Below, in pieces: positions 1-12,286 of a stretch of DNA of 43,092 bases. Below the pieces are notes generated by a model, which saw only the letters and a list, made by a program, of their open reading frames with translations, was not told the DNA's origin and did not search any database. The position numbers and the translations under genes are program-made. The stretch comes from Paenibacillaceae bacterium (lineage in GTDB: Bacteria > Bacillota > Bacilli > Paenibacillales > CANHGK01): NCBI GenBank assembly GCA_947460235.1, contig CANHGK010000019.1, positions 1 through 43,092 on the forward strand, read 5' to 3'. Positions within the stretch are counted from its first letter, which is position 1, and every line of letters begins with the position of its first letter.

Positions 1-102
1 ACCATTTGTACCGCTAGTTCCATTTGTTCCATTTGTACCGCTAGTTCCATTTGTTCCATTTGTTCCATTTGTACCGCTAGTTCCATTTGTACCGCTAGTA
101 CC
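1..102. repeat. 18-bp-type repeat encoding Gly-Thr-Asn/Ser-Gly in the alternative frame
   Basis: Mixed units of GGTACAAATGGAACTAGC and GGTACAAATGGAACAAAT (minus strand) fill this stretch. In the minus frame whose codons start at bases 1, 4, 7 (plus numbering) they read [13 protein letters not shown], a typical surface-protein linker. In the frame inherited from the SLH start they read [12 protein letters not shown]. Confidence 0.75.
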
Positions 103-1109
103 GTTGGTGTTGCCGTTGGTGTTGCCGTTGGTGTTGCTGAAGGACTTGCCATTGCTGTAGGTGTTGCCGTTGGTGTTGCCGTTGGTGTTACCGTTGGTGT
201 TGCCGTTGGTGTTGCCGTTGGTGTTGCCGTTGGTGTTGCCGTTGGTGTTGCCGTTGGTGTTGCCGTTGGTGTTGCCGTTGGTGTTGAGGTCGAGAATACA
301 TTGGGTGTACTCGTCGGAATCAAAATGTTGCCAAGATGGCCAATTACAATTAACGAAGATGTCGCAGTCACAGTCGGTGATGTCACCGGTATCACTGTTG
401 GATTTGGATCAGGCGAAACAATTGAAATATAAGATTGTAATCCCACTCCAATCACCTTAGCTTCGGTCACTTTCCCTTTGTCAAGTAACGATTGGATCAG
501 CATTTTACCAGAACTATTTTGTGTAGTCAACGTAGCGAAACACATTCCGACCACATCATTTTTGGTAAATTTATTGTTAGAAAGTTCAGTAACCTCATCC
601 CAAGTGATTATGCCTCTACGTGCAAGCGTGTTTAGCGCATCGTTATACTCTGGTGAGTAGCCGAGCTGTCTTAAAATTAGCGTCCCAAATGCCTTTCCAT
701 TTAATGCAACCTTTGGCCCAAACGTACCATTCGGCAATCCCTGAACGATTCCAATTTTGACCGCATAGGCAATATAGTTCTTGGCCCAACTCGAAATACT
801 GCTTGCATCTAAGAATATCTTTAAGATTGCATCTGCATCGATGCGTTTGATCTCCTCTTGATCCGTACCAAAAATTTTCAACAACAACACAACGCCAGTT
901 TCCCGGTCCAAAGTGCTACCCAAATCAGGTTGAAAAGAACTTGTAGAAGTCCCGCTGTACAGTCCAAGGTCATTCAATTTCTGGGCTTCGTGTTGGTTTT
1001 CAAATAAATTCACTGCGGGCACCGATGCCCCACTCGTAAAAGTAACCACGCCACATAAAAGTAAACAGCTTAAAAAGCTAGACAAAAACCTTTTCAATCG
1101 AAATTTCAT
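1..1109 (-). CDS. SLH-domain surface protein with Thr/Pro/Ala repeat tail (partial, runs off the left edge)
   Basis: Translation from the ATG at 1107-1109 gives a signal peptide ([15 protein letters not shown] then a hydrophobic stretch ending near TSGA). About 170 residues with two S-layer homology repeats follow; the second contains [17 protein letters not shown] and [20 protein letters not shown] domains bind pyruvylated secondary cell-wall polymer, so the protein is probably anchored on the cell surface. After residue ~230 the sequence becomes a Thr/Pro/Ser linker and then a TPTA repeat encoded by a 12-bp tandem repeat (105-288). GGGGTGG lies just upstream of the start. The frame stays open to base 1, but past base ~104 it reads an unlikely Met/Gln/Val/Leu string, whereas the neighbouring frame reads a clean Gly-Thr-Asn-Gly repeat, so a frameshift in the repeat is suspected. 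The 3' end is outside the window. Confidence 0.85.
103..288. repeat. 12-bp tandem repeat inside the SLH protein gene
   Basis: The plus-strand unit GTTGGTGTTGCC recurs about fourteen times with few changes. An 18-bp interruption at ~139-156 keeps the 3-bp register. Read on the minus strand the unit gives TPTA in the frame of the SLH gene or NTNG in the next frame. Because the unit is a multiple of three, whole-unit gain or loss changes length without changing frame. Confidence 0.9.
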
Positions 1110-8430: not shown

Positions 8431-9258
8431 ATGATTACCCCTTTTTTGTTTTTTCGATCCATTCGAGACCCTTTTTGTTTTATTTGAACCTCCTCTCATT
8501 GAAATGAATCTTCGTCTGTTCGTAGGTCTTTAGACTGTCTTTAATACACTTGCGATTTCGTTCTTGGAACGTGGTTCCATCCAGGTTGCGACATCCATGA
8601 TGGATGCAAAGTCATCATAATTACGATGATTACAAAGACCAATGCACATTAATATTTCAAACAAATAACTACCCCTCCGCGTTATCAATGAAAACGCTGG
8701 GACATCGTAGGTTCGAACCAGATATACCTAATGCCCATAACATCGGTTTACGCCTGTTGCTCACACAACAGGACTTACATAACGGGGGTTCTTTAAACAG
8801 CGTATTTGAAACGAAGTTTCAATTCCTCATAGGTAGGATACAAACCCGTGAATCAACACTGTTTATGAAGTTTTTAGGTATCTCCATTTTTACACATTTC
8901 CATACTAATATTCAATGTTTTCTGAAAATTCAGTTTAGATTGGTTTTGAAGGTTCTTTACTAAAACGTCAAACCCCTGATATTTGCACGTTTAAGACCTT
9001 TCACAAAATAGACACAAGTTTACTTTTAACAACACGCGTAAAATCAAGCAAAATTGCGCCCTCTCGAACTTCGACCTCATATCACTGCATATATTCCGTT
9101 GTTTTCAAAAACTTTTCCGAATTACCTGCAAGAAATCAGTTGCTTAATTCGATTATTGAGTACAAAAACGTTGACCGAAAGATCGTTCCCATCGATCGCA
9201 TTCCATAAATCCTCGCTAATCTGCATTTGCTCATTACTGAAAATTTGCAGCGACAAGA
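8431..9258. other. 830-bp non-coding stretch carrying one CRISPR repeat
   Basis: Apart from the solitary CRISPR-type repeat at 8816-8845 and small inverted repeats near 8594-8625, nothing coding is supported. The 119-codon open frame at 8604-8963 runs straight through the repeat and lacks a ribosome site. No cas gene is near. Confidence 0.6.
8816..8845. CRISPR. Single orphan CRISPR repeat (30 bp)
   Basis: The 30 bases begin GTTTCAATTCCTCATAGG and end TAGGATACAAAC. On the minus strand this is GTTTGTATCC...GAGGAATTGAAAC, the form of the 30-bp repeats of type I-B/III arrays in Bacilli and Clostridia, with the conserved GAAAC end. No second copy occurs at the 60-75 bp spacing expected of an array, and I found none elsewhere in the window. 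The left end also overlaps a small palindrome, TTGAAAC-GAA-GTTTCAA (8807-8823). I read it as a relic of a lost array or a stray single repeat. Confidence 0.6.
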
Positions 9259-10158: not shown

Positions 10159-10753
10159 TTAAATCCCTTCTCCAGTTCGATTCCACCGTGCGAGAAAATA
10201 CTCTACCCAATCAGGAATTTCTTCAGCCAAATATTCGATCTTCCCATTTATGATCTCAAGCAAATCGCGAGCCTCAAACGTATTATCCCAAAGGATCAAT
10301 TGAACTCGACCAACGGAGATGCACGAAATAAATGCTCCTGTGCACGTTCATATCGTCTAATAATATCTTCAATGGGAATATCATGCCCGCCCATTTTCAC
10401 ACGTTCTTTAACTCGGTCAATATGCCTTTGCATGCGATCTAATCCAATAAAATGCATAACCTCACGGAAACCTTGTTTCTTAGCTTCTTGCATTTGTAAA
10501 AATGGCAATCTGCCGGACAATGTCGTTTCCATCACAAAGGATTGTTTGTTATGTATCATTTGTTCAACCAATTGAATCGAAAATCGACCGGTTTGAATCG
10601 GGCTTTTTCCGGTTGACGAGGATTTAATGATTTTGCAATCGCATCCGGGTCGATGATGTACCCGCCGCCCTTAAATATCGTTTTTGATATAAATGTGCTT
10701 TTGCCCGCACCATTTTTCCCAGCAATAATCGACATGATCGGCTCATTGCTCAT
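10159..10753 (-). pseudogene. Zeta-toxin family kinase (two frameshifts)
   Basis: From ATG 10753 the frame reads MSNEPIMSIIAGKNGAGKST (Walker A; one Lys where Asn is usual), then GGYIIDPDAIAKSLNP and PEKARFK before drifting out of frame near 10585. A second frame gives VEQMIHNKQSFVMETTLSG, HFIGLDRMQRHIDRVKERV and HDIPIEDIIRRYERAQEHL. A third frame, entered near 10305, gives LILWDNTFEARDLLEIING to a TAA at 10159. Together they match zeta-type P-loop kinases, which phosphorylate UDP-activated cell-wall sugars. Two single-base-type frameshifts break the gene. Its start lies inside the end of the upstream antitoxin-like gene, an 11-nt overlap typical of translationally coupled toxin-antitoxin pairs. 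Confidence 0.8.
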
Positions 10754-10909
10754 ACGGAACCTCTTCTCGCTCACCATTCTCACGATCAATCACAACAAAT
10801 CACCGATGCCGTAGTAAACGGATGCACCTTTTTGTTTTGCTAGTTCTTTCGCTTCACAAATGGACTCGTTAAACATTTCTCGTAATTCATCCCGCGAAAA
10901 TTGATGCAT
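10743..10909 (-). pseudogene. Small antitoxin-like gene upstream of the zeta toxin (frameshifted)
   Basis: From ATG 10909 (GGGGGG upstream) it reads MHQFSRDELREMFNESICEA, KELAKQKGASVYYGIGDLL and then TGA. One frame over, the sequence continues VIDRENGEREEVPYEQ and stops at 10743-10745, overlapping the toxin start. Insertion of one base near 10797 would restore a ~55-aa protein with an acidic end. The position (directly upstream, overlapping by 11 nt) and size fit an antitoxin partner of zeta-like toxins; I cannot name a family. Both partners being broken suggests the toxin was lost first or at the same time. Confidence 0.6.
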
Positions 10910-11039: not shown

Positions 11040-12161
11040 TCAACCCCGATTCCGATACCCCAACGCCTCTAGCGTCAAATCCGTATATCCTGCCCCAATC
11101 CGATATGCACGAATCCGCTCTTCCCCACTCGCACCTTCGATCAGTCCTTTTTGCAACCATTGCTTGGCCCACTTTGTGATCGTAATCGCCTCTACTTGGA
11201 AAAGCCCTGCGATCTCTTTCGGCTTCACAGGCCGTTTGCATTCAAGTAGATAACGCAACAACGTCTTTTCATTCGGCGATAACGTCGCAATTCGCGGATC
11301 AATTTCTGATGTCGAAAATTGAATCGAGAGATTGGCAACTCGTTCAAAAGCGAGTGCCATAATGCGCACGAAATATTGGATCCATGGTGCCAAATCTGAC
11401 GGATTCGCTCTGCCGTCATAGTAGAGGGCCGGCAATCCCATTTGTAAATGTCGATAGTACCCCTGCAAGTCCTCGACATAATATTCTTCCATGGAATGAA
11501 ATCCTTTAACATCATAATTAGCAGTCGCAAGGATATAGGATGCAAGTGCACGAGCCGTCCGACCATTCCCATCTTCAAAGGGATGAATCGTTAACAATTG
11601 AAACGTAGCGATCGCAGCCTTAATTGGAACGGGCAAATCATTCTCCGTTTGAATCCATTCGATGAATTGATCCATCAAATCAGGCACATCACAATATTCC
11701 GGGGGAATATATTCTGGTTTACGAGTTTGGTTATCATATACCGCAAAAAGTACACCGGGCGGTGTCGGTCCACGATATTCGCTTTGAGCTGCCCGACGAC
11801 CAGCTCCATGTTGTACAATAATCGAATGCAATCGCTTGATAAATTCAGCTGTGATCGGAGTATGTGCTTGTTTTTGCTGCGACAAATACGATAGTGCTTC
11901 CCAGTAATTTCGCACTTCCTCTTCCACCGGAATTCGAAAATCATCCTGTTTTTGTTTCACAACGCGAGCCACTTGTTCCAAATCCAGCGTATTGCCTTCA
12001 ATCCGTGTAGAATAGTGTGTCATTTTTAATTTCGCTTGTTCTTTCAAATCATTTTCAATGTGCGCGGGGATTGGCATCAATTCAACAATCGCTCTGGATC
12101 GCTCAATTGACATCAGATCTTTTACGATTTGCAACGCAAATGTAAATTTGGGCGTGAACAC
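11040..12161 (-). CDS. Fic family protein, self-inhibited by an N-terminal helix, with C-terminal winged helix
   Basis: The 373-aa protein carries the Fic catalytic motif HPFEDGNGRTAR from His193, so it should transfer AMP (or another nucleotide part) to target hydroxyls. The inhibitory-helix motif SxxxEG is present as STRIEG at residues 51-56, before the core, which makes it a class II Fic protein. Around residues 125-155 it has the beta-hairpin target-binding flap. The last ~80 residues (SPNEKTLLRYLLECKRPVKP, EAITITKWAKQWLQKGLI) form a winged helix-turn-helix. The start is GTG 12161 behind AGAAGGGATG. It is one of the few intact genes of the island. The phased repeat array at 12203-12286 and a perfect -10 lie directly upstream, so autoregulation by its own winged helix is plausible. 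Confidence 0.9.
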   Translation of the reverse strand: MFTPKFTFALQIVKDLMSIERSRAIVELMPIPAHIENDLKEQAKLKMTHYSTRIEGNTLDLEQVARVVKQKQDDFRIPVEEEVRNYWEALSYLSQQKQAHTPITAEFIKRLHSIIVQHGAGRRAAQSEYRGPTPPGVLFAVYDNQTRKPEYIPPEYCDVPDLMDQFIEWIQTENDLPVPIKAAIATFQLLTIHPFEDGNGRTARALASYILATANYDVKGFHSMEEYYVEDLQGYYRHLQMGLPALYYDGRANPSDLAPWIQYFVRIMALAFERVANLSIQFSTSEIDPRIATLSPNEKTLLRYLLECKRPVKPKEIAGLFQVEAITITKWAKQWLQKGLIEGASGEERIRAYRIGAGYTDLTLEALGYRNRG

Positions 12162-12197: not shown

Positions 12198-12203
12198 ATT
12201 ATA
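12198..12203 (-). promoter_or_regulatory. -10 box of the fic promoter
   Basis: The minus strand reads TATAAT here, 36 bp upstream of the GTG start. The -35 position at 17 bp spacing reads TAACGA, a poor match that lies within the phased repeat array, suggesting that an activator or repressor acts there. Confidence 0.5.
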
Positions 12204-12286
12204 CGCTATTTTTACGTTATTCGTTACTATTCACACGCTATTTAGTTGCTATTCATACGCTATTTGATATTATTCGAACGCTATTT
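12203..12286. repeat. Helically phased TATT / ACGCTATTT repeat array upstream of fic
   Basis: TATT occurs at 12207, 12218, 12228, 12239, 12250, 12261, 12271 and 12282, a spacing of 10 or 11 bp each time. Every second copy from 12235 belongs to ACGCTATTT (12235, 12257, 12278, with others at 12203 and, degenerate, 12214). All copies therefore face the same side of the helix. The array abuts the -10 box of fic. It ends beside an AT-rich hairpin (TGAGTTTTT and AAAAACTCA, 12286-12309). Confidence 0.8.

What the first reader, a model, noticed from the sequence alone, without database searches (positions are those of the whole stretch)
12203..12286. Eight TATT elements phased every 10-11 bp directly upstream of a Fic gene
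TATT starts at 12207, 12218, 12228, 12239, 12250, 12261, 12271 and 12282; alternate copies lie in ACGCTATTT. All fall on one helix face next to a perfect -10 with a poor -35. This looks like a cooperative operator array or engineered curvature, and the Fic protein itself has a C-terminal winged helix, so autoregulation is possible.
Basis: partly seen in the sequence, partly recalled or inferred. Interest (0 to 1): 0.65.

Follow-up and report, generated by a model that had tools for sequence, protein, structure and literature searches.

The report
Helix-phased operator array beside Fic gene
Next to the gene for a bacterial Fic enzyme that carries its own DNA-binding domain sits a row of eight short repeats, one per turn of the DNA helix; the same kind of row lies beside related Fic genes in many other bacteria, so it is very probably the landing strip through which the enzyme controls its own gene.

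Summary
On the fic strand the unit is an 11-mer, AATAGCGTATN, and the last unit runs straight into the -10 box TATAAT.

Orthologues show that it is functional. Phased 11-bp arrays lie beside fic in other Bacillota (clades A, B, C) while flanking DNA is unrelated. The unit drifts with the clade (AATAGCGTAT, AATTARRGAAC, AATAGCGAAT) but the 11-bp period stays. A more distant Fic subfamily (about 37% identity) has two 11-bp repeats between -35 and -10. In 398 genomes both motifs occur almost only next to fic. Fic is the only gene shared by the loci, and its C-terminal winged helix is the obvious binder.

Best explanation: a cooperative head-to-tail operator for Fic's own winged helix that represses fic. 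Autorepression by a Fic-HTH protein is known (Yersinia CccR), but on a palindrome; a tandem direct-repeat array is a new variant. Arrays placed downstream of fic in several relatives are not explained by promoter occlusion alone. Binding has not been shown.

The parts
12200..12285 (-). Array of eight phased units, fic strand: AATAGCGTTCG AATAATATCA AATAGCGTATG AATAGCAACTA AATAGCGTGTG AATAGTAACG AATAACGTAAA AATAGCGTATA
   Evidence: Sequence; TRF; chain statistics; unit model
12198..12203 (-). Perfect -10 box TATAAT; it overlaps the last full unit and a degenerate ninth unit (ATTAGTTTAAG, 12199-12189)
   Evidence: Sequence; the same junction, core then TATAAT, in L014, L016, L012, L013, L015
12170..12179 (-). 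Ribosome-binding-site-like AGAAGGGATG of fic
   Evidence: Sequence; inference
11040..12161 (-). fic: 373-aa class II Fic protein, inhibitory motif STRIEGN (residues 51-57), active site HPFEDGNGRTAR, GTG start
   Evidence: ORF; Pfam Fic E 6e-18; alignment A1
11094..11276 (-). C-terminal winged helix of Fic (about residues 296-356; recognition helix about 325-338)
   Evidence: AlphaFold2 model, pLDDT about 80-90 there; Foldseek matches to SoFic and CbFic2

Best explanation
The array is a multi-site operator for the winged-helix domain of the Fic protein encoded next to it. Each 10-11 bp unit binds one winged helix in the same orientation and on one face of the DNA, so molecules line up head to tail and bind cooperatively. 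In the window (clade A) and in clade B the last unit abuts or overlaps the -10 box, so a loaded array excludes RNA polymerase and represses fic: negative autoregulation keeps a potentially toxic AMP-transferase low. Shown here: the array, its phasing, its conservation, its near-exclusive linkage to fic, its junction with the -10 box. Inferred: binding by Fic itself, one monomer per unit, cooperativity, repression.
For: Lag 11/22 is the strongest self-similarity next to fic in all clade A, B and C orthologues. The window's array aligns to clade A and C arrays beyond 200 shuffles while its flanks do not. In clade A, unit positions 1, 3, 4, 8 and 9 are conserved and position 11 is free, so this is selection on a core and not recent slippage. 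The triple-unit motif hits 11 of 398 genomes, 8 at fic orthologues and 1 beside a truncated fic. The 37%-identity subfamily has two 11-bp repeats inside its promoter; that motif hits 7 of 398 genomes, 6 of them at that fic, one of these with an IS110-type element in between. Fic is the only gene common to the loci. Unit sequence changes together with the recognition helix between clades. An orthologue ORF without the winged helix, L041, has no array. Precedents: CccR represses its own gene through its HTH (PMC9755527); BldC binds direct repeats as cooperative multimers (PMC5859096).
Against: No binding data. In L025, L029, L030, L088, L053 and L054 the repeats are downstream of fic, where promoter occlusion cannot work directly. 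L006 has a winged helix but only an inverted pair of units, and the clostridial 46-50% clade shows no clear 11-bp array. No clear -10 box was seen next to the arrays of L026-L028. The helix/unit correlation rests on few independent clades.
Confidence: 0.7

Rival explanations
1. The array is mainly a DNA platform that sets the enzymatic or oligomeric state of Fic in cis; promoter control is secondary and only happens where the array lies upstream.
For: Arrays lie downstream of fic, in the same orientation, in L025, L029, L030, L088, L053 and L054. CbFic2, a class II Fic with a C-terminal wHTH, switches from AMPylation to deAMPylation on DNA binding (PMC10628234).
Against: In clades A and B and in the 37% subfamily the repeats sit precisely on promoter elements. 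CccR's regulatory and toxic activities are reported to be independent (PMC9755527).
Confidence: 0.15
2. Another DNA-binding protein, not Fic, binds the array and controls fic.
For: The binder has not been identified. Upstream of fic in L025 and L029, where the array is downstream, there are unrelated palindromes.
Against: No other gene is shared by the loci, and arrays are absent from nearly all genomes without fic, so an unlinked general regulator is unlikely.
Confidence: 0.08
3. The repeats act by intrinsic DNA curvature.
For: Predicted curvature of the window array is above 299 of 300 shuffles, and that of L026 above 98% (wedge parameters recalled from memory).
Against: Curvature is ordinary in L014, L028, L012 and L025. 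The conserved core is GCG-containing, and two repeats in the 37% subfamily are too few for large curvature.
Confidence: 0.03
4. The array acts as RNA (a repeat RNA antitoxin as in type III toxin-antitoxin systems) or is neutral slippage.
For: The arrays in L029, L030 and L088 lie between the fic stop codon and a terminator-like hairpin, so they are probably transcribed.
Against: In the window the -10 box is at the downstream end of the array, so the fic promoter does not transcribe it; in the 37% subfamily the repeats are inside the promoter. Rfam finds no RNA family at the array. Neutral slippage would not keep some unit positions and free others.
Confidence: 0.04

Closest known systems
CccR of Yersinia pseudotuberculosis (Fic-HTH toxin and autorepressor; PMC9755527)
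   Same: Class II Fic enzyme with a C-terminal HTH that binds its own promoter near -35 and -10 and represses its own gene
   Different: CccR binds as a dimer to an inverted repeat, AGATAATCAT-N26-ATGATAATCT; here up to eight or nine direct repeats with 10-11 bp period
CbFic2 of Coxiella burnetii (PMC10628234)
   Same: Class II Fic with C-terminal wHTH; among the Foldseek matches of the model (8cil)
   Different: DNA binding was studied with random sequences, no specific site is known; its reported target is a host histone
BldC of Streptomyces (PMC5859096; also discussed in PMC11963761)
   Same: Winged-helix protein that binds DNA direct repeats as cooperative head-to-tail multimers, with one DNA turn per molecule on one of its targets
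   Different: MerR-like 68-residue protein, not an enzyme and not homologous as a whole; what is shared is only the array logic
SoFic (Shewanella Fic; PADLOC defence family)
   Same: Overall domain plan and fold; PADLOC SoFic profile E 7e-45
   Different: NCBIfam SoFic equivalog score 43 against a cut-off of 550, so not SoFic itself

Membership tests
Class II Fic AMP-transferases | Active-site motif HPFx(D/E)GNGRxxR | tested here: met
   HPFEDGNGRTAR, with H193 and G198-N199-G200-R201 invariant in the alignment
Class II Fic AMP-transferases | N-terminal inhibitory helix (S/T)xxxE(G/N) | tested here: met
   STRIEGN at residues 51-57; E55 and G56 invariant
Fic with C-terminal winged helix (SoFic/CbFic2/CccR-like) | C-terminal winged helix-turn-helix | tested here: met
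   AlphaFold2 model: helices 296-308, 314-321, 325-338, strands 341-343 and 353-355; Foldseek to SoFic and CbFic2. Predicted, not solved
SoFic equivalog (NCBIfam NF046030) | Score above the curated cut-off of 550 | tested here: not met
   43 bits
CccR-type autorepressor | Palindromic operator, 10-bp arms with 26-bp spacer | tested here: not met
   The window and clades A-C have direct repeats with 10-11 bp period
CccR-type autorepressor | Protein binds and represses its own promoter | not testable with these tools
   Needs EMSA, footprint and reporter
BldC/Xis-like head-to-tail binding on phased direct repeats | Direct repeats spaced by about one helical turn | tested here: met
BldC/Xis-like head-to-tail binding on phased direct repeats | Cooperative head-to-tail protein oligomer on DNA | not testable with these tools
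   Needs protein-DNA structure or biophysics

The most novel reading that the evidence does not exclude
The array is a cis-acting DNA element that controls the Fic enzyme itself: Fic molecules lined up head to tail on the array are held in one catalytic state and released when the DNA is disturbed. Array plus Fic would then be a DNA-gated AMP-transferase switch, which would explain arrays lying downstream of fic.
Probability: 0.15. Interest if true: 0.75.

Novelty: new variant of a known kind. Interest (0 to 1): 0.52.

Why it matters
Several characterised Fic proteins carry a C-terminal HTH, but the only specific DNA site I found in the papers held here is the CccR palindrome. A conserved, fic-linked motif with clade-specific units gives a ready-made target for binding and structural work, and lets one ask directly whether DNA binding controls transcription of fic, activity of the enzyme, or both. 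It also provides a sequence signature for finding this class of Fic operator.

Tried and rejected
Curvature as the main role: high in the window but not general. RNA element: no Rfam family at the array, and the repeats sit inside or upstream of the promoter. Chance or low-complexity TATT: rejected by shuffles. A linked third-party regulator: no shared neighbour. Arrays at the other four Fic homologues of the same genome: none with an 11-bp period. Viral decoys: one viral contig (L087) has five AATAGCGTATC units after its capsid gene and another (L096) two AATAGCGAATG units; the reversed control pattern gave none, but one or two cases among millions of contigs could be chance, so no claim is made. 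Literature on Fic with direct repeats in the held library: none found.

Full report
What was checked. The longest 10/11-bp chain of TATT in the window is 8, against at most 3 in 60 shuffles of the whole window and in 2000 shuffles of the 84 bp. Read on the fic strand the unit is an 11-mer, AATAGCGTATN; two of the eight units are 10 bp long, so every second unit is 21 or 22 bp away, close to two turns of B-DNA. The last unit runs into the -10 box: AATAGCG|TATAAT at 12210-12198 on the minus strand. The -35 region is itself filled by units and does not resemble TTGACA.

The gene. Window 11040-12161 (minus) encodes a 373-aa class II Fic protein with an intact active-site motif, an inhibitory-helix motif, and a C-terminal winged helix in the AlphaFold2 model. 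Foldseek returns SoFic and CbFic2 among the best matches, along with other Fic-domain structures. The protein scores far below the SoFic equivalog cut-off, so it is a relative, not SoFic.

Orthologues. Clade A (window; L011 Rummeliibacillus; L014 Caldalkalibacillus; L016 Alkalihalobacillus) has AATARCGTATN units upstream of fic. Clade B (L012 Tenuibacillus, L013 Evansella, L015 Aquibacillus) has units of the type AATTARRGAAC, with the junction AATAAGG|TATAAT. Clade C (57-60% identity; L026-L028) has AATARCGAATR units upstream of fic. Self-similarity of the 180 bp next to fic peaks at lag 11 or 22 in every one of these, with none of 300 shuffles reaching it except for L011 (p 0.067). A local alignment test shows that the window's array matches clade A and C arrays beyond all 200 shuffles, while its 5' flank and 3' leader match nothing significantly. 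Clade B shares the period and the -10 junction, but its letters align to the window array only weakly (p 0.01 to 0.5).

Unit structure. In clade A, positions 1, 3, 4, 8 and 9 carry 1.2-1.6 bits and position 11 carries 0.05; clade C is similar. Recently copied tandem repeats would be alike at all positions. A conserved core with a free position is what a protein site looks like.

Distant subfamily. Most Fic proteins of about 34-39% identity have TTGCGGCAAAATAGCGGCAATGATATAAT or close variants upstream: two 11-bp direct repeats between a TTGCGG -35 and the -10. L010 looked like an exception, but in that genome the repeats are found 1.8 kb upstream with an IS110-type transposase gene in between. 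L009 lacks the element, and in L051 it lies further upstream. A further group (L053, L054) has CGGCAATTTAA repeats immediately after the fic stop codon.

Specificity. Two motif scans over the same 398 genomes ignored genes altogether. The A/C triple unit hit 11 genomes: eight at fic orthologues; one right after a 5'-truncated fic ORF at a contig end (G454, L088); one where fic is absent but the SEC-C neighbour of fic-bearing relatives is present (G303, L090, probably a remnant); one after leuS (G191). G179 also has a second array without fic. The reversed control pattern gave about three hits in all. The two-repeat pattern of the distant subfamily hit 7 genomes, 6 of them at that fic and one inside an isocitrate-dehydrogenase-like gene. 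No gene other than fic is common to the loci. The four other Fic homologues in the window's genome have no 11-bp array.

Who binds. Fic is the only constant partner and carries a winged helix. The unit changes with the clade, and so does the start of the recognition helix: EAITITKW or KPITITKW with CGTA; TRTITEW or TRTVTMW with CGAA; SRTISKW with ARRGAA. An orthologue whose reading frame ends before the winged helix (L041) has no array. These correlations rest on few independent clades and are suggestive only.

How it most likely works. Shown: repeats, phase, conservation, fic linkage, junction with the -10 box. Inferred: winged helices sit one per unit in the same orientation, cooperatively; the unit at the -10 box makes Fic and RNA polymerase exclude each other; fic is therefore autorepressed. 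Autorepression by a Fic-HTH protein is established for CccR, on a palindrome (PMC9755527). Cooperative binding to direct repeats is established for BldC (PMC5859096, title; summary in PMC11963761).

What does not fit. Six loci have the repeats downstream of fic, in the same orientation (L025, L029, L030, L088, L053, L054). Promoter occlusion cannot be the whole story there. CbFic2 changes its catalytic behaviour on binding DNA (PMC10628234), so a direct effect of the array on the enzyme is a live alternative. L006 has an inverted pair of units (TTTCGTTA-N10-TAACGAAA) in place of the array, and the clostridial 46-50% clade has weak 13-bp repeats or none.

Verdict. A real, conserved, fic-linked, operator-like array: a new operator architecture for a known kind of protein. 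Binding has not been shown.

Noticed in passing
L011 around 2843 and 4199; L012 4466; L013 2796; rlmH-like ORFs in L012, L013, L015, L095: Clade A/B fic genes lie close to sequences like the 3' end of rlmH (ACTTATGATACGGTTC, antisense to EPYHK), the target site of SCC-type cassettes; in L011 such a sequence lies on both sides of fic. fic may be cargo of rlmH-targeted islands.
   Followed up: partly
L087 1510-1571: A viral contig carries five perfect AATAGCGTATC units (the clade A fic unit) between its major capsid gene and a terminator-like hairpin; a decoy for a host Fic is conceivable, chance is not excluded.
   Followed up: partly
L053 and L054, directly after the fic stop codon: Other distant Fic genes have CGGCAATTTAA 11-bp repeats starting at the stop codon (three in L054, two in L053).
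   Followed up: partly
L089 about 11515-11565: A second array of AATARCGTATN units in the same contig as the frameshifted clade A fic of G179, without a fic gene next to it.
   Followed up: partly
window about 10296-10850, minus strand: Directly downstream of fic lies a small ORF and then a zeta-toxin-like P-loop gene (IIAGKNGAGKSTFI), a toxin-antitoxin-like pair.
   Followed up: no
window 8816-8845: Rfam CRISPR-DR2 match (48 bits), a single repeat without a visible array in the stretch searched.
   Followed up: no
window 2-286: Dense 9/12/18-bp tandem repeats at the window start, probably coding for a low-complexity protein.
   Followed up: no
L101 / L104 (G005): An IS110-family transposase gene sits between the conserved two-repeat promoter element and fic, which explains the apparent lack of the element at L010.
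   Followed up: yes
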